NCBI GenBank assembly: GCA_009778715.1
Contig: WRFR01000007.1
Coordinates: 1-59,003 of the forward strand
Direction: 5' to 3'
Source: Coriobacteriia bacterium
GTDB lineage: Bacteria; Actinomycetota; Coriobacteriia; WRKU01; WQUG01
Length of the DNA: 59,003 nucleotides
The notes beneath the pieces are model-generated. The model saw only the letters and a program-made list of their open reading frames with translations, ran no database searches and was not told where the DNA came from. Shown piece by piece: positions 8,613-23,624 of this stretch. The translations under genes and the position numbers were made by a program. How positions within the stretch are numbered: the stretch's first letter is position 1; each line of letters starts with the position of its first letter.

Positions 8613-8784
8613 GATGTCGTGGTCCTCACTTCCTCCTGAAAATTGCAGTTTTATTCTCCTCTTCTCCAGCGCTGCCTTAAACCAGAAAGAGAGAGTTTAC
8701 ACACTTGCTCTATATAGGTACGCAAAACTTACGCAAAAAAACTCGAACCCAGGAAAAGATGCTCGGCACTATTCTGTCGCTTGA

Positions 8785-10086
8785 TTATTTCCAATTCTTC
8801 ATATTCCCGATCGCAAAGAGAGGGATATTGTGCATCCAGCTCTCATTGCGATACCCCGAAAGTGAGAAGCGACGCGGATTCATGCCCTTGTATTTCTCGT
8901 TGAAAGCACGCAGGCTCTTGGAATGCAGGTTCTCTGCGGCTTTGACTTCAATAGGGTAGATTCGATCCTCATCCTGAACAAGAAAATCAATCTCGCCGCG
9001 GGAGTTTTCGGCAGACCAATAGAATGGCCGTAGCTCACAATCAGATATAAGCTGCTGACAGACAAACTGCTCTGTCAGAGCGCCCTTAAATTCCTCAAAC
9101 ACCTGGTTTCCACTTATCACGCTGCTCATGCAAAGCCCAGCCATGGCTCCGAGTAACCCCACATCAAGCGCAAAGAGCTTGAAAGCAGACTCGTCTACAT
9201 ACGCTGAAAGCGGAGCGCCTGGTTTTGAGACGCGGCGCACGCAGGCAGCAAGCCCAGCTTCTGTAAGCCAGGTGATCCCTGAGTGATAATTCTTGGCCCG
9301 AGCGCCTTCTTTAATATGCCCGAATATGAACTTCTTGTTCTCCTGCCCCAAATGAGCGGGAATTGAGTCCCATATAGCAAGGGCATATTCCGTCTCCGAC
9401 ACCGTGAGATGCTTGGTGATATCACGGCGATAGTCAAAGAGTATTTGGTTCTGTATGCTGCGTGCGTCATCAAGAACGCCGCTCTCTGCAAACGCCAGGA
9501 CAGCTTCAGGCATTCCGCCAACAAAGTAATACTGCCGCAACAAGGAAATAATCTTAGATGAGAATGCTGAGACAGCAGCAGCATCTGCAGCATCAATGAT
9601 CTCTCGAAGCGACTGATTGTCCGTCGCGTCAAGAAATTCACGGAAATTCAGAGGGTAGAGATCAAGTGTCGTGACATTACCCACAGGGTATCCCGTCCCC
9701 TGGTGAACAGCAAGTCCGAGAAGCGACCCAGCAGCAGCAATCATCTGCCCTGGAGCGTTCTCCCGAAAGTACTTGAGCGAAGTCAAGGCCTTCGGGCACT
9801 CCTGTATCTCATCAAAGATAATTAGGGTTTTGCCTTCGACGATGCGCTCATGCGCCTCTGCCTGCAACCCCGTGAGAAGACGCGCGCTATCATAACCCTC
9901 CTCAAACAATAGGTTCATCGCTTTGTTATTGTCAAAATTCACATAGGCAACGTTGTCGAAATACCGCGCGCCGAATTCCTTGAGCAGCCATGTCTTACCT
10001 ACCTGACGAGCTCCGTTGAGAATGATCGGCTTCTTGCGACGACTGCTTTTCCAGTCAACAAGCTTTGACATCAATTGACGTTCCAT
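8785..10086 (-). CDS. AAA+ ATPase with C-terminal DUF4143 domain
   Basis: The product has 433 residues. Walker A is GARQVGKT (25-32) and Walker B is LIIFDE (88-93), preceded by the sequence RQLMSKLVDWKSSRRKKPII usual at the start of this family. The C-terminal half carries a restriction-endonuclease-like DUF4143 domain (RGEIDFLVQDEDRIYPIEVK near 365-385, with the D...E-K pattern). These proteins are common, horizontally mobile and of unknown biological role; defence or nucleic-acid handling has been suggested. The gene stands alone with its own TATAAT-containing upstream region, and the export operon follows downstream. Confidence 0.9.
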   Translation of the reverse strand: MERQLMSKLVDWKSSRRKKPIILNGARQVGKTWLLKEFGARYFDNVAYVNFDNNKAMNLLFEEGYDSARLLTGLQAEAHERIVEGKTLIIFDEIQECPKALTSLKYFRENAPGQMIAAAGSLLGLAVHQGTGYPVGNVTTLDLYPLNFREFLDATDNQSLREIIDAADAAAVSAFSSKIISLLRQYYFVGGMPEAVLAFAESGVLDDARSIQNQILFDYRRDITKHLTVSETEYALAIWDSIPAHLGQENKKFIFGHIKEGARAKNYHSGITWLTEAGLAACVRRVSKPGAPLSAYVDESAFKLFALDVGLLGAMAGLCMSSVISGNQVFEEFKGALTEQFVCQQLISDCELRPFYWSAENSRGEIDFLVQDEDRIYPIEVKAAENLHSKSLRAFNEKYKGMNPRRFSLSGYRNESWMHNIPLFAIGNMKNWK

Positions 10087-10309
10087 GGCAGCCCTTTCAT
10101 CTGTATCAATACATCCTTATTATAGCCCAAGAGTGCTAAAATAAGGACGTATTTTAGCATATTTTGGCTATTTTAAGGACGAATGAGTTGTCATGCGTAG
10201 CTTAAGTGGTAGCCTGTAGCTATTTCCAAAGAAGAATTCTCCGCAATTTTTGTTATTGCACTGAACATATTTGAAGCCTGCCCAGCTCGTCGTAGCTGTA
10301 ATTGCGCTA
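10087..10309. other. Intergenic interval between divergent genes
   Basis: Apart from the inverted repeat and TATAAT of the ATPase promoter (10118-10158) I see no gene, RNA or repeat here. It separates the minus-strand ATPase from the plus-strand AbrB/PIN operon. Confidence 0.5.
10118..10158 (-). promoter_or_regulatory. Promoter region of the DUF4143 ATPase with a perfect inverted repeat
   Basis: On the minus strand a TATAAT hexamer lies about 35 bases before the ATG at 10086. Just upstream is a perfect 9-bp inverted repeat, GCTAAAATA (10135-10143) and TATTTTAGC (10150-10158), with a 6-base spacer AGGACG that recurs once more to the right near 10175-10180. This looks like an operator at the -35 region. 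No convincing -35 hexamer is seen. Confidence 0.45.
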
Positions 10310-10359
10310 TTGAATGGCTGCGGCAAATAGATGCTATAATCTAATAAGGTTATTAGATT
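10310..10359 (+). promoter_or_regulatory. AbrB/PIN promoter with a 22-bp perfect palindrome
   Basis: A -35-like TTGAAT (10310-10315) and a perfect -10 TATAAT (10335-10340) are 19 bases apart. Overlapping the -10 is a perfect palindrome: AATCTAATAA (10338-10347), GG, TTATTAGATT (10350-10359). A symmetric site on the -10 directly upstream of an AbrB-fold antitoxin is what is expected of the autorepression operator of a toxin-antitoxin operon. Confidence 0.75.
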
Positions 10360-10378
10360 TAGGAGATAGGTGAATATC

Positions 10379-10651
10379 ATGTCTGAAGCGATCATGGATC
10401 TCTCGACTGTGACAACCAATGGGCAAGTGACTATTCCGGCTGAGGTGCGGCGGCTTCTCGGCGTTAAGCCGGGCAATAAAGTCCTGTTCTTCCAACGCGC
10501 AAATGGTGATGTAGTCATCGACAACGCATCGGTAGCCGCTATTAAAAAAGCTCAAGCAGCTTTTGCTGGAGCTGCTGAGGAAATTGGCTGGAAAAGTGAT
10601 GATGATGTTGTTGAGACGGTTATGGAGCAACGCTACGGACGTAATGCCTGA
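10379..10651 (+). CDS. AbrB/MazE/SpoVT-fold antitoxin
   Basis: The product is 90 residues from the ATG at 10379 (AGGAGATAGG upstream at 10361-10370). A GTG at 10370 is in frame but overlaps that site, and an ATG at 10394 is a further possibility. The N-terminus has the swapped-hairpin signature STVTTNGQVTIPAEVRRLLG followed by VKPGNKVLFF, and the C-terminal half is a helical tail that would wrap the toxin. Its stop overlaps the toxin start (TGATG). It should bind the palindrome at 10338-10359 and neutralise the PIN protein. Confidence 0.88.
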   Translation: MSEAIMDLSTVTTNGQVTIPAEVRRLLGVKPGNKVLFFQRANGDVVIDNASVAAIKKAQAAFAGAAEEIGWKSDDDVVETVMEQRYGRNA

Positions 10652-11037
10652 TGCGGGTAATGCCTGATACTAACATCATCATTTCAGCTTTGATGTTTCC
10701 GGACTCAAAGCCTGCTGAGGTACTAACCCGCATTGCAAGTCGACATGAAATGGTATTGAGCAGTTACCTCATCAACGAGGTTGAGAGTGTTCTGCGTTTG
10801 AAGTATCCGAAGCTTCTTCCTGCGGCACAGGAGCTATTTAGCACGATGTCTTTTGAGCTGGCAGTAGAGAGCGACCAGGCTGATGTCGTTATCGCTGACC
10901 CAAAGGATCAGCCCATTCTTGATGCTGCTGTTTCAGGTGAAGCGGATGTCATTGTGAGCGGCGATAAACACTTCAAGAATCTAGATATAAAGCGACCAAA
11001 GGTGATGAGCCCGTCAGAGTTCCTGGTGCTGGAATAG
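10651..11037 (+). CDS. PIN-domain ribonuclease toxin (COG1569-like)
   Basis: The product has 128 residues, or 125 if the second ATG at 10660 is used. Acidic residues expected of a PIN nuclease are visible: D in MPDTNIIISAL near the N-terminus, E in INEVESVLR in the middle, D in DPKDQPILDAAVSG and D in IVSGDKHF near the end. This is the pattern of the 'putative toxin-antitoxin toxin component, PIN family'. It should cleave RNA with Mg or Mn. It is coupled to the AbrB-fold antitoxin by a one-base overlap. Confidence 0.87.
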   Translation: MRVMPDTNIIISALMFPDSKPAEVLTRIASRHEMVLSSYLINEVESVLRLKYPKLLPAAQELFSTMSFELAVESDQADVVIADPKDQPILDAAVSGEADVIVSGDKHFKNLDIKRPKVMSPSEFLVLE

Positions 11038-11227
11038 CGCCGACTGTCCCTTCTGAAAAATGGGACAAATTTGGGACAAATGCCTTGAAAAGTGCCGACT
11101 CCCAGTGATCCCTCATGATTTGTTTGCGTATACCTACGACAATAAACCACTAGCGTATTTTCAGCGCAGTGCAATTCTGATGCGGGAATTACCGCGCTTA
11201 TCGCTTCGCCTTTTACTATGTGCTTTA
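11038..11227. other. Convergent intergenic region
   Basis: This lies between the ends of the PIN toxin (+) and the M16 peptidase (-). A 6-bp stem TGTCCC (11045-11050) / GGGACA (11062-11067) and a short GCGG...CCGC hairpin near 11190 are the only structures seen; neither has a good U-tract. No gene was found. Confidence 0.4.
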
Positions 11228-12499
11228 TTACAATTCTTGCCAGATTTCCTGCACGTCAGCCTCGGTAAAAGGTATATTTTCAGACGCTATTGTTATTGTT
11301 GTATTTGAAGGGCGGAAGATCAGGCCAGCCACTTCCGTTAGTCGTTCACGAGTGATTGCATGGTTACGCTCTATCATGGTTTCTACATCAATGACCGGCT
11401 TACCCCTGACCGCCACCCATCCCAACTCTATATTGAGATCATCGCATTCATCAAGCCGATACCAAAGATTGTCAGTAAAAAACGGCGTGGTTACAGTAAA
11501 GTCTCTCGCCGAGATGCCGTGTTTGAGTTGATGGAGTGCGGCCACTATCTCCTTTTGAGCCAGAACCGCCTTTTTGTTTTCTACCGACAGCGCAACATTA
11601 AAAACAGCCTCATGAGCAAATATCTCCGCCGTAGCATCAATCTCATAGGACAAACCCAAATCCTCAGAAATGAGCTTGGGTAAAACAGAACTTCCCGAAC
11701 TTCCAACAAGATTACTCAGGAAGAGAAATTCGTTTTCGGCAATAACCGATGTATCAACATCAAATGATATACGAAGATCAGTGTCGTCATACTCCCACTT
11801 TTTTAATAAGACGTCGGGAGAACGGTTAAACTGTACAGAGCGACCACTTTCATCCGAAGCTTCAACAAGATGGTTATTGGGCAACGACAACCCGCCGAAC
11901 AGATCATCAATATAAGCGCAGTCATCGGCTGATATATCTCCCGTAACAACAAGCCATACATTTTCTTTGCAGAAGAACCGCTTCTTATGACGAACTATAT
12001 CATCCAGATTCAATGCCTTTATTGAAGCCTTTGTACCGAGTGGCAACAAAGAGAGCGGGTGCGACTTCCACATGGCCTTTGCCTCATCAATGTCTAAATC
12101 CCAGTCAGCTGGCTTTTCGCGCAGCTCATTAAGTATGATTCGCCGCTCTGCATTGAACTGCTGCTTACTCCAAGGGGTATCTTGAAAGATATGCTCAAAA
12201 AACCAGAGCGACTCCCTTAGGTAGTGCGGTCGTATTTGCATCAAAAAACGAAGCATTTCTTTAGAGGTCGCCCCGTCTAATGATCCGCCAATACGCTCAA
12301 CCTTATAGCGTATTTCATCTTGGGATATCGCACCCAATTGCTGGAAATGCATATGCTCCAAAAAGTGAGTTATCCCATTATTGGCAGGGGTCTCGAATCG
12401 CGAACCTACTCCTATATAAAGTCCAACAGTGACAGAGTGCGCCGTCGGTACGGGATAGTAAATTATCCCTATCTCGTTCTCTAGTTTTTTCACTTGCAT
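11228..12499 (-). CDS. M16-family (insulinase/pitrilysin) zinc metallopeptidase
   Basis: The product has 423 residues. The inverted zinc motif HxxEH is present as HFLEH (residues 45-49), and the third ligand fits E125 in IILNELREKP, 76 residues after H49, as in active M16 enzymes. The C-terminal half has the usual second lobe (LVGSSGSSVLPKLISEDLGL). There is no signal peptide, so it probably acts in the cytoplasm unless exported in another way. It starts 20 bp after the stop of the giant RHS gene and is probably co-transcribed with it; a role in processing or clearing that protein is speculation. Base composition is more AT-rich than the housekeeping genes to the right. Confidence 0.9.
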   Translation of the reverse strand: MQVKKLENEIGIIYYPVPTAHSVTVGLYIGVGSRFETPANNGITHFLEHMHFQQLGAISQDEIRYKVERIGGSLDGATSKEMLRFLMQIRPHYLRESLWFFEHIFQDTPWSKQQFNAERRIILNELREKPADWDLDIDEAKAMWKSHPLSLLPLGTKASIKALNLDDIVRHKKRFFCKENVWLVVTGDISADDCAYIDDLFGGLSLPNNHLVEASDESGRSVQFNRSPDVLLKKWEYDDTDLRISFDVDTSVIAENEFLFLSNLVGSSGSSVLPKLISEDLGLSYEIDATAEIFAHEAVFNVALSVENKKAVLAQKEIVAALHQLKHGISARDFTVTTPFFTDNLWYRLDECDDLNIELGWVAVRGKPVIDVETMIERNHAITRERLTEVAGLIFRPSNTTITIASENIPFTEADVQEIWQEL

Positions 12500-12518
12500 T
12501 GTTTAGCCTCAGTTCTCT

Positions 12519-15500
12519 TTACACATACTTGCTTTTTCGCACAAGCACCCACCTATTAACGTAGATAGGCCTGCGCACTGTTCTGGCGACACGAATGGTT
12601 CTTGCTCGTGGCACTCGAGCGACCACAACCGCAGGCGCGAAAAAGCAAGGTAAAAGATAGATCACGACCACATATACCACAACAATTGTGACTACAGCTA
12701 CAAACGTCATCCATACAATAGTACTTCTATGTTCCCAAACCCAAGTATACACTCGACGAGCCGCGCGACCACCCGTCCCTTGCTTTTTTCGATTGTGCAC
12801 CTCTGCTTCAGGGTGCGCATCATTTTTGTTTCGCCCATTTCGATTGTTGGGCTTTTTTGGCTTATTCTTTTTGGTGCTTTTTTTCTTGTGACCTGTTGGA
12901 TCAGTATTATTTATTGGATCATTTGAACAATACGAATACAAGTTATTAGTATCAGGATTTTCATTTTCACCTCTATAGGTGTCTTGAGTCAAGAAGTAAG
13001 CATTAATTGGGTTATAGTACCTGGCATTTAAGTAATATAATTTCGTGCTCTCATCATAGATGCCACCGGTATAGGCGATCTCGTTATAGGTGTCTGCATC
13101 TCCTGAACGCTTTGTTTCTCCAAAGTCAGAATAGGTGTAGGAAAGAAGGTCTGTGCCGTCATCAGCCAGTACGCTGCTCGTTGAGTTACGTATATCGGTT
13201 GTGTAGGTAAGATACTTGTCTGCCTGATCGCCACCATAGCGCTTAGAGGAGATAATCTCTCCACCGTCTCCGTAGAGATTAAAGCTTATCTTTTGCCCAG
13301 AACTATTGGTCGTGTAAAGAACTTGTCCTGATTGATAAGCGTAGTTGGTGGTCACATCCGCTTCGGTCTTTGAGATGCGTTGACCATCACCTCGATAAGC
13401 ATTGGAGTTAAAAATAGTGGAGCCCTGCTTTACCTGCGTCAGATGGTTATCTATGTCATAAGAGAAACTCTGGGTTATTCCTGGGCCTACTGAGGTAGTC
13501 TCATTACCGTCTTCATCAGTACTAGTCGTAATCGTCTTGTCTGTGATTTCAGCTATCTGGTTACCATTTGCATCATAACTGAAGCTTGCGGTTGCCGCCC
13601 CAATCTGTTTTTTCGTCATCTGGTTCAGGCCATTATAGATGGCATAGTTCTCTTCGCCATCTATGCCCTCCATCCTGCGGTTGCCGATTGCATCATAGCC
13701 ATACGTGAAAGACTCAGTGCTGCCTTCTATATTATCGGTGACATCAGAAGAGATAAGCCTGCCAAGTTCATCGTAAGTGTATTCACGTACCTGATCGGTG
13801 GTATCTTCTCCCGGATAGTTAGTAACATGCTCTTCAAAGATGATCTGAGAACTCTTGTTGTAAGAGTAGTCATAGCCATCTAAGTTATTACCAAAGCCCT
13901 CATAGCCAAGCGAGATTACTCGGCCAAAGTCATCATAGCTGTATTGCTTGATAAGATACTGACTGCTTCCCTTAGCAAAGCCGGGGTAATCTTTGAGATA
14001 AGATACTCTTCCCCAATCATCATAATTGTATTGACGAAGTGTCGCCTCTCTTGTAACGGTTCCTGTCTTCAGCACTGCCTTGATCTGAGAGATGCGCCCC
14101 TGGTTGTCATAGCTGTATTTCAGGGCTACCGGGGCATTGGTGCTATCCGCTACGTCTTCAGGATAATCGCGCTCGATTAGACGTCCCGCGCTGTCATAGA
14201 TATAGCAAGTCTTGTCTTTATCGGCGATATGCTCTGGATCTGCTGGTATTGACGTCCCCTCATAGCTGCCTGTAAGCTTGCCTGCTTTATCGTAATCGCT
14301 GCGCTGATAGTAGATAACCGTAGTGACAGATCCTTGATGGCGATAGTCCGTAATTGAGACTATGCGGTTAAAGCTGTCGTAAGTATTTACGCTGGAAAGC
14401 TCCAGCGTGCCATTGACGCGATACCATTTAGTCTCGGTCAGATTATCGCGCGTATCATAAGCGAAAGTCTTGTAGTCGCCATTGGAATAGGTTTCTTTTA
14501 CCTGCTGTTCTTTCCCGTTGTAGAGATAGCTTGTAGTAATCCCTGCCCCTGATGCAGCTGAAGCCTGCCCGAAGTCCGTAACAGAAAGTGTTTTACCTGC
14601 GGCGTCTTTAGTTGTCTTGCTCAGACGACCCAAGGCATCGGTGACCGTATCTGACGTCGTTTGATCTATCGGATCAATAGTATCGGTCATATAAGAAGTG
14701 ACAGGCGCGATCGTCTCCCGATTTTGATCTTGCGCCGAGAGACTTGACGAATTAATAATAACAGAGGTTTCAGGCTGGGTAACTGAAGCGAGTTCTCCTT
14801 TTGTATCGTACGTATAATGCGTCACCTGACCCAATGCATCGGTCTTCTCCTTTTCCTTGCCTTCGCTATCAAAGACCGATTGAGTGGTGATAGTATCATC
14901 GCCCAGATAGTAATGCCCGCCTGCATATAGTGGCTGCCGCACAGAAGCGATCGCGTTGCCGTTTTCGTCATAGAGGCTTAGATCGGTTTTTGCCTCTTGA
15001 CGGGAATGCGTCGCTGGCAAAGTGATCACGGCGAAAGCTTTTCCGTCTTTAGTATAGGTTGTATCAGAGTTAACCCCAACAGCGCTGTTGCGCACTTGCT
15101 GGTCAAGCTCATCGGTATAAGACTTCGTCACCACACCGGCAGGGTCAGTAGAAGTAGTAACGCCAGCGATAAGGTTCTTTGTCCCTGCCGGAACGTTCAA
15201 CGTGACATTTTCAAAGCCATAAGCAGTCGTGGAGACTTGCGCCGGACGCCCTTGGGGCACTACTGTCTTTGTCAGCGCCCTACCAAGCTCATCATAGAGA
15301 AAACTTGTCTGTGTTCCTAAATCATCAGTCTGATGATTGATGCTTCCGTCCTTGTTATATGTAGTCGTTGTTGTCTTGGCGTCGCTTCCTTCTTCCTGGG
15401 TGACTGTTGAGGTAGGCCTGCCCATAAAATCGTAAGTGTTGGTTGCCTTTATCCAATTTGTAAGCACACCAGAACTCAAAGTGCCGGTAGTATTTGAAAG

Positions 15501-18500
15501 TTCCCGAGCCAACCCGTCATAAGAGCTATCAGTCTCAGTGATGACATCCGGACTTCCGTAGGTGGTATCTACCTGTTTCGTAATATTGTCGTATTGGTCG
15601 TATTCGTAAGTTGTCTCGCTTTGGGGGACAGCGGCGCCTTGAGGAACTCCGTTGACATATTTCTGGAGAGAAGTAAGCGTACGTTTCAGATTGCCATTGG
15701 GATAATACTCACTTGTCATGGCAGATTCCTCTATACGATCCACATCTGAGGTTTCTTGGCCGTCAGCGTCATAATCCCACGCACCATCAGAAATAAGTAC
15801 GCCGTTTTCGTCATAAGTTTTCTCTGAGGTAACTTCCTCTTCGTTTATCGTGCCCGCGCTGTCATAGGTTGACTCAGTAATCGAACCGTTGTCTTCTACC
15901 GTTGTCGTTGGTAGATCCAAAGTATTGTATTCAGCCTTTGTGGTCTTTGGCACACTGTGAGTTTCAATTACTCCTGAACCGTCAATGCTGTGATAGTCGC
16001 TATCAGCTGTAGAAGACATCAGCAGGTAATCCTGATAGACATAGCTCGTATGACGTGCGGTCTGATTTGCAACCTCATCTGGAGTGCCGGCCCAGGTATC
16101 TGCCATAAGTCCTGCCGCGCCATAGGTTGTCTTCGTCTCGCGAGTAGGGGCGGCTAGCTCTGCCGGAGTATAGTAGCTAGAAGTGACTGGCTCTGTCATG
16201 TTCCCATAGACCAACTTGGTTATATCCCCGTGGGCATCTTCTGCGCCGGTTGCTTGCATTAGCGTGTCGAGCTGTCCGGCGGGGTTGTAGCTGATTTTTG
16301 TCCGCGGGGGCGCCTGCGTCTGTGAGTTTGCCACGCCATTTATAGCAGTCATATAGTAACGATCAATATCTGAGACTGGCTTCATGTAGTCATAAACGTA
16401 GGACACGTCATTATCTGACGTCTGTGGCAGATCCCCACTCACAAAGGCTTGCTCACTGAGATGTGTGGAGTAGTCGCGTACTTCTACTAAGCGTTTTTCT
16501 TGGTACGTGTAGCCGATCACCGTCTCATCGGGCAGCCAGACTACGCTGATAAGACCATCTGGATTGTGCGCAAAGCGTATTTTGCGCAGCCCCTTAGAGA
16601 CTACTTCCGTCAACTGCCCGCGCTTAGCGTCATAGCTTAGTACCAAGTTGGACTGGCTGTCATCTGCAAAGTAGGTATCCTGACCTGCAGGTAGCGCCTC
16701 ATCAAGCTGCTGAGCTTTTTCAGTAATATAGACCAGCTGCCCGCCTTGATTGAACCAGTACTCGCATTTCTTATCAAAGGTCACCACATATTTGACCAGT
16801 AAGACATCATAGGTATTTTCATTATTTCCTGACCCCTTTTGGGTCAAGACGCGTACTGGCTTTGGAGTGTCAAAGACTGTCAGGCGTACCCGTTTGGAAT
16901 CAGAGGTGAAGTAGGTCTGGTTAGGTTCATCCCAGGCAAAGGTGCGCAAAGTCCCTGTGTCATCTTTTAAGACATAGCCCTCTCCTGAGATCTGCTTGAG
17001 CAGCTCGACGTTATATGAAAAGTCGGTACCCAGCCCGAAGGGGAAAACAAGTGAGGACTGGGAGTTATAGGTACGCGTCACGCCATCTTTAAGCAGACTG
17101 TCAGACTCGATCGGTTTATCGGTTTGCGTGAAGACGAAGTTGCCCCAGCTTTTTTCGATCTGACCTGATCCGATAGGAGTAGTCACGCTCTCGTAGTCCC
17201 AGTAGTCCTGGGTCCCCAGACGTTTGGCAAGCTCATCGGAGTCTGCTACCGTAGAGGCGCTTACATTAGAGGGGGCGCCATAGTAGTTAACTGTTTTGCC
17301 AGCTACTTGCTCGGTTCTTACCGCGCGTACCCGATAATAGAGCGTCGTTGAGTAATCGGTATTAGGGGAAGCGAAGTAGTGCTCCTTAAGTCCCTCTGCT
17401 GAGCTCTTCCAGGTTCTGACTGGAGCGTTAGCATCAAAAGAGTACAGTACTTCATAGCTGATCTGTGGCAAGATATTTTCAGTTGAAGCACTATCCCAAC
17501 CCAGATAGGTTTTGTAGTCGAGCTTGTCACGTGCGATTAAGTTAGCAGGAGCTGCCTTCCCTAAGAAGTCGATCTTAAAGACATCAGGCGCGGTAAAGTT
17601 TGCAGTTACATTCAAGGAACTCAAGCTGGCTGTAGCCGTGCTGCCAACACTACGGTTGAGCACTACTTTAAAGCGGACGCTTGACACATAGAATTTACCG
17701 GTTTCACTATATGCAGACCAGCTATCTGCATCGATCTCTTTATAGGGCGCTCCGTCAACAGAGATATAGTACGAAATTGCTGCATCGCCGGTTACCTGCA
17801 CCTGATGCTGAAAAGAAAGTGAAGTAAAGGGCAAAGCCGAAGTCACTTCCTGGGTAACAAGTTCGGCAGAAGTGAAGTCGGCATCGAAGGTAAACGTGCC
17901 ATTTTCAAAATGCCCTCCGATGCAGTTGAAGTCTTGCTCATCGCTTAGGTTCGCTGCGTACAGGATTCCGGAGGCTTGTTTGGCAGTTGATGCGGCAATA
18001 GAGCTTGGAGTAGTAGTGCCAAGAATGGTGTAGTAATTGCCCTCGCCATAACGTGAGATGTCAGCAAAATCGTCAGCAAACGTTGGGTTTTGCGCAACAC
18101 TGCTGACATGCTTTGCTGGAATTCCATCAATATACCAATCAAACGCTGAAGAGCCATACGTCGAAGGATTAGCGAGAGCAAAGAGATCGCTTTTTGAGGT
18201 AATAGCGCCACCTGTAGGACAAGTAAGCCCTGAACCAGGCTGCCCGTAAAGCTCTGTTGAGGAGATTGGATTGTAGACATCAAGCGTAGTCTCGCTCACA
18301 TTGCCCATAAGGTCTTTAGCTTGAAGCTTGAAAGTGTAGGTCGCCTGTGCTGGGCGTTCTGAAGACAAGTCAAAGTAAGCAAGCGCACTATTAGTTTTTT
18401 CACTGTCCCCGCTACCGACAAGCTCGTAGCTGCTATCAGGATCTCCTGCCTCTTTAACGAAGACGTAGTAGCCAGAAAGATAGTCACTTAGTACGCTGCC

Positions 18501-21500
18501 TGCGAGAATACCAGCGCTCATCTGCGTAAGAGCAACATCTGGTCCTTCTGTATGCACGGTGACGGTAATAGAGCGTTCGTCACCAGGTATTCCCTCAGAT
18601 GACATTGCTCGCATCCAGATAGTGTAAGTACCTTCAATTGGAATATCGTGATCATCTACTGGGGTAAAGATGGTCAGGCTACCCATGTTAGAGGGGTCAG
18701 CGAACACTTCACTGTAGTCACTACGTTCCCCATCTTTCTCTATTGCATACTGGATACCTGTGCGTTCGCTCTGGCCTCCAAAAAAGATCCAGTTGATATT
18801 AAAAGCATTAGTGCTTTTTACAGTACTGTCAACGGTAAGAACTGGGGCCGCAAGTCGATTTGCGATTTGAAGATGAAGCGTCTTAGTACCGGCATCATTT
18901 CCGGCCTTGTCTTTACCGGCATAAATCAAATCATAGAGACCGTTAGGATAGGTATTGGTGATCAGAGAAAGCGTTGAGGACAGAGTTGCAGCAGGAGCAA
19001 TGACTGTTGAGCTTCCGTCTGTCGTATTTTCCAAAGTTAATGTGGCCACATCGATTCCACTGAGTGCCTCGGTCACCGTTGTAGCAATAGTGACCGTGTT
19101 GGTAACTACTGCCGGATTTGAAGAGGTACTCGTCGTGTCTGCAATGGGGTTTCCGGTGGGTCCGTCAGAAAGTTTGAAATCGAGTACCGGCGCCACCGTA
19201 TCTTTCCAATAGTTGATCAGGTAGGCTGTGCCAGTGTTTCCGGCCTTATCAACCGAGCGCACTCTAACCTCGTATTTCCCGCTGTCGGGAAAAAGACTTG
19301 CTGGAAGGGCTGTCGTGCCAGAAGTTGTGGCTGCAAGAGCTGTCAGATCACTATAAGCGCCAGCTGTCGCCCCTGCTTTATTGGTCTCTACCTGCAACTT
19401 GAAAGTATTGCCGCTATAAGCAGGAGCATCGCTCAGCCCTGACCAGACAATGGCAGGCGGCGTAGCCGCGTTATACCAGCCAAAAGAGTTTGCCGCAGGA
19501 CTCAGTGTCGGCGTATTCATTTTTGGCGCCGTCGCATCATAGTAGTACGCATAGCTTTTTTCGGCGCTCAGGTTGCCTATCCGATCTTTAGCACGAAGTA
19601 CCAGGGTATGAGCACCGGCAGTGGTCGAGATAAAGTCTGCTGCGGTAAATGTGTAGGAGCCACCAGGGAGGGTAAAAGAGTTAGTTTTGGTAACCGGCAC
19701 ACTGTGTACAGCAGAAGTAGTGCCATCAGGACGTTTAACATAGGCTTCCAACGTAAATGCGCCTGCATTACAGACTGGTTTGTCAGTGGCTGAAGTCCAT
19801 GAAATGGTAGGAAGCGTTTTTGAATATGAGCTTGCTGTCGTAGCAGGACTTACCGGAGACGTTGGCATATTAAGAGTAGGAGCGGTCGTGTCAACATGGA
19901 ACCAGGCCCCTTTACCCGTACCTACCGCCCCATTTGAGTCATGTCCTCTGATATAGACCGCGTAGCAACCCTGGGTATAGCTTGTGATAGGTAGACTGTA
20001 GCCAGAGGTTGCGACACTGTTGGAAGTATAAGGTGAAGTAGCGTATTCCTTGACGTTGGTAGAGGCTGTACTGTGGGTTCCCGCTGCGTCCGTCGTTCCA
20101 TTGGCTATCCGGAGCTCTACTCTGTCCAGATAACTTGAGCTGATGCCTGTCCAGGTAATCTTAGGAAGAGGATTGCCGGGCTTCCAGGTACTTGGCGTTA
20201 TGGTTAAGGCTGTAGCTGTGGTAGGTGGATCAGTATAGGTCACCGTAAGCTTAGGACGATAGGAAGCGGTCGCTGTAGACTGACCGCAAAATTGAGTGTA
20301 ATTGCTTAAGGTCTCATCTGATTGTTTGAGCATCAGGCCATATCCGGGAATAGTCCCGTTTGCTACCCCCTGTACCCAGCTTTTTACATCAAAGGAGATA
20401 TCATAGCTGGTAGTCCCTGTTGCCTTGCTGGCAACAGCTGTTGCGGCATAGCCTGGGCGGGTGTTCCAGCACAGGTCTCCGTAAGTATTGGTCTGCCCGG
20501 TTCCGGGGGTAAGCACCTGATGGACGGCGACCGTGATGTTTTTGTTATACGATGAGTTATTGACCTGGCGAAGTGTTAACGTGGCGCCTGTTACTGACTT
20601 TCCCTTAACGTCGCTATTGAAGTTTTCTCCTTTAAGGAAAGAACGCGAAGTCCCTTCGCTCCCCTTGCCAACCGCCATCACGGTGCCATAACCAACTATG
20701 CTGGCAAAAGATGACCCGCTTCTGATGAAGGTAGTAGCAAGCCCGGTACCGGTAGTGGTATTTGCGTAAGTACCCTGCCAGGTCAACGTGGGATCTACGA
20801 TGACTGGATAGATACGATCAGGACTCTGGAGATAGTCATTATCTACCACCAAAGTAAGCAGGTAGCTGTCCGGGTCATTCTCTTTCTGGGCTAACGTAAA
20901 ATAGAGCGCATCTGAAGATGCGCCATCTTTTGAACTATCCTTCATCGACGCTGCGGGAATTACAGCAACCACGTTAGTGGTGTCACGTGAATCAAGAAGC
21001 ATCACCGAGCGTCCGTCTTCTGAAAGCTGAGGGATTGTTCCTTTCAAGTTGAGATTATAGACAAAGGTATTGGCGTCTGGAACATCATCTAATACGATCT
21101 CTTCTTTAACACCAATATCCGAGGAAGTGTATTCAAGATGGGCTGAGTCGTTCAGGTCATAACGAGCCTTCAGAGGTACCTGTTCAGTATTGTTATAGGC
21201 ATCGGTGTAGCTCTCTTTAACTGATTCCGGGTTTGTTGGAATAGCCGGATATGCACTCTTCTTGATGTCTAAGTCATAGGCGCTATCAGCTGCAATAAGA
21301 TCAGTTTTTGCATCAGTAATCGTTTTTCCCGTGACAAGTCCATCGGCCTTGTTTGCTATCTCGCCAACGTGCGTTAAGTTTCCAAGATTCTGTGTTATGA
21401 AATCTGTATTCGTAACAGGGGAAAGATCGATCGTGTAATCGCCGTTGGTAAGAAGGAGCGGAGTTGAAGCATCTATCGTCTCGGGGAAGTATTGCTTCAT

Positions 21501-21890
21501 GTCTCCCGCAGCGTTTTCGTACCGGTAGCCAGCCCTATCACTTGATTTCAGCGTTGGGTCATAATCAACAAGCTTGCCGTCTTTATCAGCAAAGCGCACC
21601 GGCGAGGAAAAATACTCTGCGGTAGTCTGACCAGCAGCATCGGTATAGAGATTTGCGTCGGTCTCTTTCTTCAGTGTCGGAGGCGCCATAATCGCCGGAG
21701 GTTTTATCTGGGAAGCGAGATCTGACGTGAGAAGCGCATCAGTGGAAAGACTGCCTACCGCCATAACTGATGTTGGAGCAATAGCTAAAATCAGCACGAC
21801 TGAGAGCAGAAAACAAAGCGATCTGCTAAAAAGATTAGTTGAGTAGTTAAGGTTCTGCGGTGATGTCAACGATTGACTTGCCTGCTTCAT
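12519..21890 (-). CDS. Giant RHS/YD-repeat surface protein with a toxin-like C-terminal tail
   Basis: The product is about 3,123 residues from the ATG at 21890 (AAGGAAAG upstream; an in-frame ATG 12 codons earlier lacks a site). A signal peptide is evident (SLCFLLSVVLILAIAPTSVM, near 20-45). Then come a pro-region, a DNRLRE-like domain with paired secondary-structure repeats (about 390-570; AVHQVLTPGTGQTNTYGDLCW), several Ig/FN3-like modules beginning TAPT, a carbohydrate-binding-like part and a long array of YD repeats (YDxxGR/L, about 1,600-2,950). The RHS core is clear (YYLNARYYNPINAYFLTQDT, then NLYSYCSNDPINNTDPTGH). The 122 residues after DPTGH form a different, very basic tail with one long hydrophobic segment, in the place where WapA/RHS proteins carry exchangeable toxins. 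Three palindromes lie immediately upstream. Confidence 0.92.
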   Translation of the reverse strand: MKQASQSLTSPQNLNYSTNLFSRSLCFLLSVVLILAIAPTSVMAVGSLSTDALLTSDLASQIKPPAIMAPPTLKKETDANLYTDAAGQTTAEYFSSPVRFADKDGKLVDYDPTLKSSDRAGYRYENAAGDMKQYFPETIDASTPLLLTNGDYTIDLSPVTNTDFITQNLGNLTHVGEIANKADGLVTGKTITDAKTDLIAADSAYDLDIKKSAYPAIPTNPESVKESYTDAYNNTEQVPLKARYDLNDSAHLEYTSSDIGVKEEIVLDDVPDANTFVYNLNLKGTIPQLSEDGRSVMLLDSRDTTNVVAVIPAASMKDSSKDGASSDALYFTLAQKENDPDSYLLTLVVDNDYLQSPDRIYPVIVDPTLTWQGTYANTTTGTGLATTFIRSGSSFASIVGYGTVMAVGKGSEGTSRSFLKGENFNSDVKGKSVTGATLTLRQVNNSSYNKNITVAVHQVLTPGTGQTNTYGDLCWNTRPGYAATAVASKATGTTSYDISFDVKSWVQGVANGTIPGYGLMLKQSDETLSNYTQFCGQSTATASYRPKLTVTYTDPPTTATALTITPSTWKPGNPLPKITWTGISSSYLDRVELRIANGTTDAAGTHSTASTNVKEYATSPYTSNSVATSGYSLPITSYTQGCYAVYIRGHDSNGAVGTGKGAWFHVDTTAPTLNMPTSPVSPATTASSYSKTLPTISWTSATDKPVCNAGAFTLEAYVKRPDGTTSAVHSVPVTKTNSFTLPGGSYTFTAADFISTTAGAHTLVLRAKDRIGNLSAEKSYAYYYDATAPKMNTPTLSPAANSFGWYNAATPPAIVWSGLSDAPAYSGNTFKLQVETNKAGATAGAYSDLTALAATTSGTTALPASLFPDSGKYEVRVRSVDKAGNTGTAYLINYWKDTVAPVLDFKLSDGPTGNPIADTTSTSSNPAVVTNTVTIATTVTEALSGIDVATLTLENTTDGSSTVIAPAATLSSTLSLITNTYPNGLYDLIYAGKDKAGNDAGTKTLHLQIANRLAAPVLTVDSTVKSTNAFNINWIFFGGQSERTGIQYAIEKDGERSDYSEVFADPSNMGSLTIFTPVDDHDIPIEGTYTIWMRAMSSEGIPGDERSITVTVHTEGPDVALTQMSAGILAGSVLSDYLSGYYVFVKEAGDPDSSYELVGSGDSEKTNSALAYFDLSSERPAQATYTFKLQAKDLMGNVSETTLDVYNPISSTELYGQPGSGLTCPTGGAITSKSDLFALANPSTYGSSAFDWYIDGIPAKHVSSVAQNPTFADDFADISRYGEGNYYTILGTTTPSSIAASTAKQASGILYAANLSDEQDFNCIGGHFENGTFTFDADFTSAELVTQEVTSALPFTSLSFQHQVQVTGDAAISYYISVDGAPYKEIDADSWSAYSETGKFYVSSVRFKVVLNRSVGSTATASLSSLNVTANFTAPDVFKIDFLGKAAPANLIARDKLDYKTYLGWDSASTENILPQISYEVLYSFDANAPVRTWKSSAEGLKEHYFASPNTDYSTTLYYRVRAVRTEQVAGKTVNYYGAPSNVSASTVADSDELAKRLGTQDYWDYESVTTPIGSGQIEKSWGNFVFTQTDKPIESDSLLKDGVTRTYNSQSSLVFPFGLGTDFSYNVELLKQISGEGYVLKDDTGTLRTFAWDEPNQTYFTSDSKRVRLTVFDTPKPVRVLTQKGSGNNENTYDVLLVKYVVTFDKKCEYWFNQGGQLVYITEKAQQLDEALPAGQDTYFADDSQSNLVLSYDAKRGQLTEVVSKGLRKIRFAHNPDGLISVVWLPDETVIGYTYQEKRLVEVRDYSTHLSEQAFVSGDLPQTSDNDVSYVYDYMKPVSDIDRYYMTAINGVANSQTQAPPRTKISYNPAGQLDTLMQATGAEDAHGDITKLVYGNMTEPVTSSYYTPAELAAPTRETKTTYGAAGLMADTWAGTPDEVANQTARHTSYVYQDYLLMSSTADSDYHSIDGSGVIETHSVPKTTKAEYNTLDLPTTTVEDNGSITESTYDSAGTINEEEVTSEKTYDENGVLISDGAWDYDADGQETSDVDRIEESAMTSEYYPNGNLKRTLTSLQKYVNGVPQGAAVPQSETTYEYDQYDNITKQVDTTYGSPDVITETDSSYDGLARELSNTTGTLSSGVLTNWIKATNTYDFMGRPTSTVTQEEGSDAKTTTTTYNKDGSINHQTDDLGTQTSFLYDELGRALTKTVVPQGRPAQVSTTAYGFENVTLNVPAGTKNLIAGVTTSTDPAGVVTKSYTDELDQQVRNSAVGVNSDTTYTKDGKAFAVITLPATHSRQEAKTDLSLYDENGNAIASVRQPLYAGGHYYLGDDTITTQSVFDSEGKEKEKTDALGQVTHYTYDTKGELASVTQPETSVIINSSSLSAQDQNRETIAPVTSYMTDTIDPIDQTTSDTVTDALGRLSKTTKDAAGKTLSVTDFGQASAASGAGITTSYLYNGKEQQVKETYSNGDYKTFAYDTRDNLTETKWYRVNGTLELSSVNTYDSFNRIVSITDYRHQGSVTTVIYYQRSDYDKAGKLTGSYEGTSIPADPEHIADKDKTCYIYDSAGRLIERDYPEDVADSTNAPVALKYSYDNQGRISQIKAVLKTGTVTREATLRQYNYDDWGRVSYLKDYPGFAKGSSQYLIKQYSYDDFGRVISLGYEGFGNNLDGYDYSYNKSSQIIFEEHVTNYPGEDTTDQVREYTYDELGRLISSDVTDNIEGSTESFTYGYDAIGNRRMEGIDGEENYAIYNGLNQMTKKQIGAATASFSYDANGNQIAEITDKTITTSTDEDGNETTSVGPGITQSFSYDIDNHLTQVKQGSTIFNSNAYRGDGQRISKTEADVTTNYAYQSGQVLYTTNSSGQKISFNLYGDGGEIISSKRYGGDQADKYLTYTTDIRNSTSSVLADDGTDLLSYTYSDFGETKRSGDADTYNEIAYTGGIYDESTKLYYLNARYYNPINAYFLTQDTYRGENENPDTNNLYSYCSNDPINNTDPTGHKKKSTKKNKPKKPNNRNGRNKNDAHPEAEVHNRKKQGTGGRAARRVYTWVWEHRSTIVWMTFVAVVTIVVVYVVVIYLLPCFFAPAVVVARVPRARTIRVARTVRRPIYVNRWVLVRKSKYV
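12522..12887 (-). other. RHS C-terminal tail: basic linker plus hydrophobic segment
   Basis: These bases encode the 122 residues after the DPTGH boundary. The first 50 are Lys/Arg/Asn-rich (KKKSTKKNKPKKPNNRNGRN), then comes a hydrophobic stretch of more than 30 residues (STIVWMTFVAVVTIVVVYVV, then VIYLLPCFFAPAVVVARV), then an Arg-rich end. No nuclease or deaminase motif is recognised. A pore-forming or membrane-active tip, or a simple membrane anchor, would both fit. Confidence 0.55.
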
Positions 21891-21942
21891 AAGCTTTCCT
21901 TCCTCGCTCTCCGGTAATACAGACAAGATAGCAAGGATAACT

Positions 21943-22026
21943 CATGTGTTTTCACATGAATTGGGAAATTGAGCAAACTCATGTGATTTCACATGGTAGA
22001 TATCATCTCTCATGTGGATTCACATA
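21943..22026. promoter_or_regulatory. Three palindromic operators upstream of the RHS gene
   Basis: The 16-mers CATGTGTTTTCACATG (21943-21958), CATGTGATTTCACATG (21980-21995) and CATGTGGATTCACATA (22011-22026) share the form CATGTG-N4-CACATG. The first two are perfect in both arms and the third differs by one base. Start-to-start spacing is 37 and 31 bp. They fill the 154-bp gap between the LuxR-type regulator and the RHS gene, so they are candidate binding sites of that regulator. Confidence 0.8.
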
Positions 22027-22044
22027 TACTGTGAAAAGTGCCGG

Positions 22045-23463
22045 TTAAAACCTTAGATGCCGATACTTTGCAGCCAACACTCCGTGCGGTCGCACTCCCA
22101 TTTTTGACATAATATCCCCGATATGGTTTTGCGCAGTGCCCACATCAATAGTCAGCTCCTGTGCAATCTGCTTTGCGCTCATGCCCTCAACTATTAATTT
22201 GAAGACATCTATCTGCCGGGGAGTAAGCCGATACTTGGTTACAATACCTTGCAGAGACTCATTGGTTGTATCATCTGCCCGGTCATCTGGCTCAGTAATC
22301 TGATTGCTTTGCACGCGCGTAGCCAAGTAAAACAAAAACAAGAAAACAAGTAACGCAACAAGAACGATCGTCAGCGTTAGGGGAAACCCCCACCGTCTGT
22401 CAAAGTTCGTCTGTGAAATACCGAGCATATGCAGATTTAATAATCCCTCGCTGGCAAAGTAGACGAGCAAACCAAATCCCGCAATGAACCCCTTACGAGG
22501 ATGTCGTGCAGCCGCCATCATACAGAGGATGCAGACAAGAAACACGCAGCCCTTTTCTCCAAGATTGAGTACAATATAAATCATTGCATTTCCTGTAAAG
22601 GTACCATCGAGAAAAAGAGCGGCAAGACAGCCCAGCACCATCAACGCGATCGGAATAGCCAAATTCAGCACACTGAGTCGTCTATCAATCCAATACCCCA
22701 GAAGAGCAGCAAACGGGATCCGTAGGATGATTACCGCAAAATAAAGCCAAGGCACCTCTACTAAGCCACCTGGTATTTCCAGGTTTCCAGAATTCATCAG
22801 CTGGCCCAAAGCGATCAACAACACAAACCCCATCAAAAGGATAATCAGGTTACGCGAGGCAACGACCCGGCCTTTAGCAAGGTCTGCCGTTTTATTATCT
22901 CTACTGCTTTTTGGCCAACAAAAAAATATGACAAGAAGAAGCGCCATGAGGATCAGAAACCCTAATGTCGTAATGGACATCCTTGGAAGAAGATCTGAGA
23001 AATAATGGTAACCCATGCTAAGGGGAAACACCGCAACCGAATAAAGGCTTGCTGATATACCAGCTTTAAGTCCTAAATTTTTGATCGGGCCGCTTTCGAG
23101 AAAACTCACCAGGGACGCACAGATAAACAACCCGATCAGAATGCCAAATAGTGCACCCATGGGAAGCGAGAACGGCACCCTATCGACAACTAGCATCCCA
23201 ATGCTATAAAGCAAGAGAAGAAGTGGGGCTAAACTGCGAGAGGTACGACAAAAATCAGAAAAGAAATGCTCCAGCGCGCCATACAGCATAATTCCCAGAG
23301 GAATCATCAATAATACGCTGGCCCCTACCGCGCTGAATCGCCCACTGGTAGCGTAGATGAGTTCTGCAGCAATGCCAACCGCCACCATAGAGAGGCAGAG
23401 CATCAAAAATGGATAGGGTTTCCTGTTCTTTAATAAAGCCGGAGAAGATTTATCAAAATCCAT
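22045..23463 (-). CDS. Multi-membrane-helix LuxR-family transcriptional regulator
   Basis: The product is 472 residues from the ATG at 23463, 8 bases after GGAAGG; an ATG two codons earlier is only 2 bases from it. About 12 hydrophobic segments fill residues 15-385 in an MFS-like arrangement, and the C-terminus is a LuxR helix-turn-helix (LTPRQIDVFKLIVEGMSAKQ, then IAQELTIDVGTAQNHIGDIM). This one-component, membrane-anchored plan is abundant in Coriobacteriia, where few members have known ligands. It lies directly upstream of and in line with the RHS gene, with three identical-type palindromes between them, so it probably controls that gene. The inducer is unknown. Confidence 0.93.
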   Translation of the reverse strand: MDFDKSSPALLKNRKPYPFLMLCLSMVAVGIAAELIYATSGRFSAVGASVLLMIPLGIMLYGALEHFFSDFCRTSRSLAPLLLLLYSIGMLVVDRVPFSLPMGALFGILIGLFICASLVSFLESGPIKNLGLKAGISASLYSVAVFPLSMGYHYFSDLLPRMSITTLGFLILMALLLVIFFCWPKSSRDNKTADLAKGRVVASRNLIILLMGFVLLIALGQLMNSGNLEIPGGLVEVPWLYFAVIILRIPFAALLGYWIDRRLSVLNLAIPIALMVLGCLAALFLDGTFTGNAMIYIVLNLGEKGCVFLVCILCMMAAARHPRKGFIAGFGLLVYFASEGLLNLHMLGISQTNFDRRWGFPLTLTIVLVALLVFLFLFYLATRVQSNQITEPDDRADDTTNESLQGIVTKYRLTPRQIDVFKLIVEGMSAKQIAQELTIDVGTAQNHIGDIMSKMGVRPHGVLAAKYRHLRF

Positions 23464-23624
23464 TGACATTACCTTCCATAATACTGGATAAATTCTAATT
23501 TCACTTTTTATAGTATAACAATTCTCAACCAGCAGAAATGCATGATCGCATTCAACCTTAGGGTAGAGCTTAGAAGCTGAGAAAGGCTAAAATAAGGGCG
23601 CAAAAGAGCCGTTTCAGGCTATGA

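What the first reader, a model, noticed from the sequence alone, without database searches (positions are those of the whole stretch)
12522..12887. RHS C-terminal tail looks membrane-active and has no obvious immunity gene
After the DPTGH boundary the last 122 residues change to a Lys/Arg-rich linker, a hydrophobic segment of over 30 residues and an Arg-rich end. In WapA/RHS systems this place carries exchangeable toxins with an immunity gene directly downstream. Here the next gene is an M16 peptidase. Either the tail is an anchor, or it is a pore-type toxin whose protection comes from elsewhere, perhaps the peptidase.
Basis: partly seen in the sequence, partly recalled or inferred. Interest (0 to 1): 0.6.

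Follow-up and report, generated by a model that had tools for sequence, protein, structure and literature searches.

The report
Orphan membrane-inserting RHS toxin-slot tail
A giant bacterial surface protein of the RHS weapon family ends in a one-of-a-kind greasy, positively charged tail that looks like a swapped-in warhead or a membrane anchor, and the gene that follows, where the antidote usually sits, is a protein-cutting enzyme.

Summary
After DPTGH the last 122 residues are a Lys/Arg-rich linker, a hydrophobic segment (36 residues without charge) and an Arg-rich end. The tail is a separate, exchangeable cassette: relatives matching the RHS core at 43-53% stop matching at the boundary and carry other tails. 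The tail has no relative in 396 class or 366 phylum genomes beyond weak composition-type hits. A same-genus genome shares the first ~1,685 residues (78%) but ends in a phospholipase-C-like piece.

The M16 gene is not an ancestral neighbour: the low-GC block LuxR-RHS-M16-TA-AAA is absent from a same-genus genome where alr and macA are adjacent. M16 starts 19 bp after the RHS stop, keeps its zinc motif, and has only distant relatives (20-30% identity). A gene follows 53 of 57 other surveyed RHS tails (-20 to +200 bp); 44 of those 53 products have a membrane-like segment. M16 has none.

Most likely a membrane-inserting polymorphic-toxin cassette (0.5). A Sec stop-transfer anchor is the main rival. 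M16 as proteolytic immunity is possible but untested.

The parts
12519..21926 (-). RHS (WapA-like) gene; the sister's ORF suggests that the real start is the ATG at about 21890
   Evidence: ORF, translation, RHS_repeat 5 stretches, DNRLRE and Rhs_assc_core; sister ORF starts with MKQ
12888..13133 (-). Rhs_assc_core, residues 2932-3013, ending in DPTG-H; first Asp motif is DTYRG, Asp-Asp spacing 27
   Evidence: TIGR03696 E 9e-17, 76 of 76 positions; spacing
12522..12887 (-). the tail: orphan 122-residue C-terminal cassette
   Evidence: no relatives beyond weak hits; core alignments end at its start
12726..12887 (-). basic linker of the tail
   Evidence: residue counts; predicted mostly unstructured
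12618..12725 (-). hydrophobic segment, 36 residues without charge
   Evidence: Kyte-Doolittle 2.89; helix, mean pLDDT 86-96 per 10-residue block around it
12522..12617 (-). Arg-rich end of the tail
   Evidence: 10 K/R and no D/E in the last 31 residues
11228..12499 (-). M16 metallopeptidase gene, in the immunity position
   Evidence: Pfam; HFLEH at residue 45 and Glu 76 residues after its second His; +19 bp; no orthologue
22045..23469 (-). LuxR-type regulator with a membrane-like N-terminus, travels with RHS
   Evidence: GerE E 9e-12; 70% identical and next to RHS in the sister
8785..23469 (.). inserted low-GC block (edges somewhere in 8613-8784 and 23470-23624)
   Evidence: GC and GC3; alr and macA adjacent in G003

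Best explanation
The tail is an exchanged C-terminal cassette of a WapA-like RHS polymorphic toxin, and it acts on membranes. Shown: core and tail have different distributions; the tail is one hydrophobic helix between basic arms; M16 is the next gene, same strand, 19 bp on, inside the same inserted block. Inferred: the protein is exported by Sec, the RHS shell holds the tail, the core's Asp protease cuts after DPTG, and the released cationic hydrophobic peptide inserts into a competitor's membrane, perhaps as an oligomer, and depolarises it. How the producer is protected is unknown; M16 and the producer's own topology are the candidates.
For: Alignments of relatives end at the tail boundary: 14 of 19 places besides the window reach the boundary and end at query residues 298-312, the tail starting at 300. 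Different tails on related proteins, including the same-genus sister. Tail absent elsewhere. Other tails of the class include toxin or lytic-type domains: Ntox44, AHH, Amidase_6, CHAP/NlpC, Zn_dep_PLPC. 18 of 57 other tails also have a membrane-like segment. Arg codon CGA 7 of 16 in the tail against 4 of 84 in the rest of the gene (Fisher p 1.6e-4), a codon picked after seeing the counts.
Against: Only one helix, in a low-confidence single-sequence model (mean pLDDT 63), while Tse5-CT and CDI ionophores have several (PMC9637101, PMC11630599, passages). No homologue with known toxicity. The neighbour lacks the membrane segment that 14 of 17 neighbours of membrane-like tails have. No gene recognisable as a known immunity family.
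Confidence: 0.5

Rival explanations
1. Anchor: the tail is a Sec stop-transfer segment that keeps the RHS shell on the producer's surface, with the basic linker outside and the Arg-rich end in the cytoplasm. M16 is a bystander.
For: One very hydrophobic helix, higher than in all 57 other tails, with an Arg-rich end carrying no acidic residue. No known toxin domain. Sec should insert such a segment (established knowledge).
Against: The linker on the outer side is just as basic. The tail is not shared by any other RHS protein found, odd for a structural anchor. No LPxTG motif in the tail (sequence). The position is the exchange slot. Cleavage after DPTG would free the shell.
Confidence: 0.28
2. 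Decay: the cassette is a remnant or read-through left by recombination, with no present function.
For: Tail scores low in a codon model trained on RHS, LuxR and M16 (-0.07 against a minimum of 0.121 in RHS windows). Abrupt, apparently damaged fusions occur in the sister.
Against: 122 open codons where 0 of 5000 shuffles stay open, and an ordered basic-hydrophobic-basic layout. Its synonymous codon score (-1.254) lies inside the RHS range (-1.291 to -1.029). The codon model is biased by amino-acid make-up.
Confidence: 0.14
3. Toxin with a protease guard: M16 is the immunity protein and destroys the tail peptide in the producer's cytoplasm. This is a special case of the best explanation.
For: Immunity position. 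Zinc motif kept. Accessory gene inside the inserted block, no orthologue. Recalled, from no call: M16B enzymes such as the mitochondrial processing peptidase act on short Arg-rich amphipathic peptides.
Against: None of the 50 other complete downstream proteins matches an M16 family at E 0.001. The 2012 survey names Imm-ARG as the only enzymatic immunity protein then known (PMC3482391, passage). No membrane segment. The pairing is seen once.
Confidence: 0.1

Closest known systems
WapA/RHS polymorphic toxins of Gram-positive bacteria (for example S. suis WapA, PMC12704120, passages read)
   Same: DNRLRE, RHS repeats, Rhs_assc_core, variable tail, a gene directly behind the tail; orphan tips in the same genome and family
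   Different: No recognisable toxin or immunity family; M16 in the immunity position
Tse5-CT of P. aeruginosa, an RHS pore-forming tail (PMC9637101, PMC10684867, passages read)
   Same: Hydrophobic membrane-inserting tail behind an RHS shell
   Different: Tse5-CT is predicted to have several membrane helices and its immunity protein Tsi5 two; here one helix and a soluble neighbour; no sequence relation was tested
Tox-W-TIP (PMC3482391, passages read)
   Same: Small hydrophobic RHS-linked tail; an RxxR (RAAR) precedes the helix
   Different: One helix instead of two, no Wx[ST]IP motif, not a proteobacterium
CDI ionophore toxins (PMC11630599, passages read)
   Same: Proposed depolarising action
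   Different: Five-helix bundle and membrane-located CdiI there; one helix here
YfmH/YfmF-type M16 proteins
   Same: Best NCBIfam matches of the M16 protein (E 5e-11 and 8e-7)
   Different: Far below the curated cut-offs (42.6 of 250 bits; 28.4 of 285)

Membership tests
WapA-like RHS polymorphic toxin | DNRLRE, RHS repeats and Rhs_assc_core | tested here: met
WapA-like RHS polymorphic toxin | N-terminal Sec signal peptide | tested here: inconclusive
   Basic then hydrophobic stretch read by eye in the translation; no predictor was run
WapA-like RHS polymorphic toxin | Aspartyl protease motif DPXGX18DPXG (form given in PMC10684867) | tested here: not met
   Second DPTG present, first motif DTYRG, Asp-Asp spacing 27 instead of 22. 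Relatives in the family show similar departures, such as DSVLG. The motif is described there as found in many Rhs proteins of Enterobacteriaceae, so I do not take it as defining for WapA types
WapA-like RHS polymorphic toxin | C-terminal tail differs while the core is shared | tested here: met
WapA-like RHS polymorphic toxin | Cognate immunity gene directly downstream | tested here: inconclusive
   M16 at +19 bp, no known immunity family
WapA-like RHS polymorphic toxin | Tail is toxic and the neighbour protects | not testable with these tools
   Needs expression in a laboratory strain
Tox-W-TIP | Two membrane helices and Wx[ST]IP | tested here: not met
   One hydrophobic segment, motif absent
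CDI-type ionophore | Five-helix bundle | tested here: inconclusive
   The model shows one long helix and one poorly predicted helix, mean pLDDT 63, no alignment
Sortase-anchored surface protein | LPxTG before the hydrophobic segment | tested here: not met
   Absent from the tail sequence
M16 metallopeptidase | Both M16 domains and HxxEH(x)75E | tested here: met

The most novel reading that the evidence does not exclude
The RHS warhead is a single-helix cationic membrane peptide and its immunity protein is a cytoplasmic M16 protease that destroys it: proteolytic immunity in an RHS system.
Probability: 0.1. Interest if true: 0.75.

Novelty: new member of a known kind. Interest (0 to 1): 0.38.

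Why it matters
RHS tails are a large store of untested antibacterial activities, and single-helix tails are easily passed over as anchors. This one sits in a slot where exchange can be seen, next to an accessory protease inside the same inserted block, so two small experiments would decide between anchor, membrane toxin and protease-guarded toxin. If a protease proved to be the immunity protein, it would add another kind of enzyme to immunity, for which the 2012 survey knew one case (PMC3482391, passage read).

Tried and rejected
Homologue hunts for the tail: own family 1 of 9 genomes, itself; order 5 of 14 at E<=1, itself plus four weak; class 12 of 396 at E<=0.01, itself plus 11 weak, of which the 9 held as loci L058-L066 are not at an RHS end by a motif check and 2 were not looked at; phylum 1 of 366 at E<=1e-4, itself; plasmids none; viral contigs none, with core plus tail as query; PDB only flavivirus M/prM membrane segments at E 0.0009-0.007 and an EcfT segment at 6.4; Pfam Orf78, Sec62 and RIFIN below their cut-offs; PHROGs and PADLOC none for the tail. 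The weak Pfam and PDB matches cover the helix or the basic stretches, so I read them as composition, not kinship.

M16 as a housekeeping neighbour was rejected: near genomes have only a 20-23% identical M16 elsewhere, and the site without the block exists. A lost stop codon joining tail and M16 was rejected: the two are in different frames (coordinates). The coding-score test was not decisive, because its training set carries the amino-acid make-up of RHS. The promoter and terminator scan found fewer sites than the shuffles gave on average. No fold search was made: the model is one long helix of low overall confidence. Literature: five papers read by passages only (PMC10684867, PMC9637101, PMC11630599, PMC3482391, PMC12704120); all others were seen in search listings. 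Searches aimed at a protease or M16 as immunity listed no such case in the rows shown; this covers the open-licence library only.

Full report
Observation. The minus-strand ORF 12519-21926 encodes an RHS protein of up to 3135 residues with a DNRLRE domain, RHS repeats and a full-length Rhs_assc_core. They consist of a basic linker, 36 residues without charge, and an Arg-rich end. The single-sequence AlphaFold2 model (mean pLDDT 63) has one long helix at about tail residues 39-91, well predicted only around the hydrophobic segment, a poorly predicted helix after it, and an unstructured first third.

Is only the tail different? As far as could be seen, yes. In the family, 5 of 9 genomes (the window's own included) match core plus tail. 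Of the 19 places besides the window itself, 14 reach the boundary and end at query residues 298-312, where the tail starts at 300; 5 end earlier. By BLASTP the core is 48% identical to G299 and 43% to G006, ending at residues 298 and 299 (the genome search gives 53% and 48%). Their tails are a zincin-looking domain (HEFGH, read by eye) and an unrelated segment. The core has relatives in 63 of 396 class genomes at E 1e-5. The tail has weak hits in 11 of 396 besides itself, and none besides itself in 366 phylum genomes at E 1e-4. The nearest named relative, contig WQYT01000026.1 of a Coriobacteriia MAG, lies in a genome whose matches have the same coordinates as those of the same-genus genome G002. 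It has the LuxR gene (70%) and the first ~1,685 residues (78%), then changes abruptly into a stretch whose last 122 residues match Zn_dep_PLPC (E 1e-4, below the curated cut-off) and are 66% identical to an orphan tip tail of the window's own genome. So N-terminal part, core and tail behave as recombining units in this lineage. That sister protein lacks the RHS core altogether, so it shows exchange or deletion, not a clean tail swap.

The next gene. In this class a gene usually follows the tail closely. I fetched 60 regions chosen by me from the hits, not all hits, and used 7 earlier loci; a motif script found 57 distinct tails besides the window's. Regions in which the motif was not found gave no row, tails under 20 residues or running off the end were left out, and identical tails were counted once. 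An ORF of 60 or more codons starts from -20 to +200 bp after 53 of the 57, and 44 of the 53 products have a Kyte-Doolittle segment of 1.6 or more. These are mechanical ORF calls and some will be wrong. Pfam finds toxin or enzyme domains in some tails (13 families over 57 tails) and two immunity families, Imm-NTF2-2 and Imm11, once each among 50 complete neighbours. The place is thus that of immunity genes. In the window it holds M16, at +19 bp, with the zinc motif intact and no membrane segment.

Where M16 comes from. LuxR, RHS and M16 have GC3 of 0.45-0.49 against 0.76 for alr and 0.71 for the macA-like gene; GC is low from about 8.5 to 23.5 kb. In the same-genus genome G003 the macA-like ORF starts 281 bp from the end of alr with no gene between. 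In G002 alr has other neighbours and the LuxR-RHS pair lies at another site. Hence the block was most likely inserted, M16 included. M16 has no orthologue in what was searched: 20-23% identity in near genomes, best class match E 4e-29 at 24%, up to 30% over a part, best phylum match E 4e-31 at 25%. The window's genome also has a second, ordinary M16 elsewhere. So this M16 belongs to the cargo.

Mechanism. I consider a membrane-inserting toxin cassette most likely (0.5), because the slot, the different tails on related cores and the neighbour pattern are those of toxin tails, and 18 of 57 other tails are membrane-like too. An anchor is the main rival (0.28): one very hydrophobic helix with basic flanks is what a stop-transfer segment looks like, and known pore-type RHS or CDI tails have more helices (PMC9637101, PMC11630599, passages). 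Against an anchor stand the absence of this tail from every other RHS protein found and the lack of a sorting motif. Decay (0.14) cannot be excluded. That M16 is the immunity protein (0.1) rests on position, on shared arrival and on what M16B enzymes are recalled to cut; one unreplicated pair is weak evidence.

Comparison. It works like a WapA-type RHS polymorphic toxin and meets that family's domain make-up and its variable tail; the immunity gene and the toxicity are open, and the exact DPXGX18DPXG form is not met here or in its relatives. It is not Tox-W-TIP. What is new is an orphan tail type with an unusual neighbour, not a new system.

Noticed in passing
L002 9998-15427 (WQYT01000026.1): Sister RHS: after ~1,685 shared residues it jumps into the middle of a Zn_dep_PLPC-like toxin tail, without repeats or core; an internal deletion, a pseudogene or a misassembly. 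Three small ORFs follow, the first two or all of them with hydrophobic stretches.
   Followed up: partly
window 10370-11037: MazE/AbrB-type antitoxin plus PIN-domain toxin pair on the plus strand inside the inserted block.
   Followed up: partly
window 8785-10086: AAA_14/DUF4143 ATPase, PADLOC candidate PDC-S01 (E 9e-168). The same Pfam pair occurs once among the 50 genes behind other RHS tails.
   Followed up: no
L107 (G015 C1), L112, L088, L118-type loci and others: Rows of orphan RHS tips with different tails, each with its own small, mostly membrane, neighbour gene: a large untested set of toxin-immunity pairs in Coriobacteriia.
   Followed up: partly
L073 and L080 (G118): RHS tips with ~100-residue tails made almost wholly of two or three hydrophobic segments and membrane neighbours of similar size: likelier pore-type toxin pairs than the one examined here.
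   Followed up: no
G299 C19 and C15 (L067, L068): A genome of another family of the class has the RHS core closest to the window's (53%), closer than family members (48%), which points to horizontal transfer of the core.
   Followed up: no
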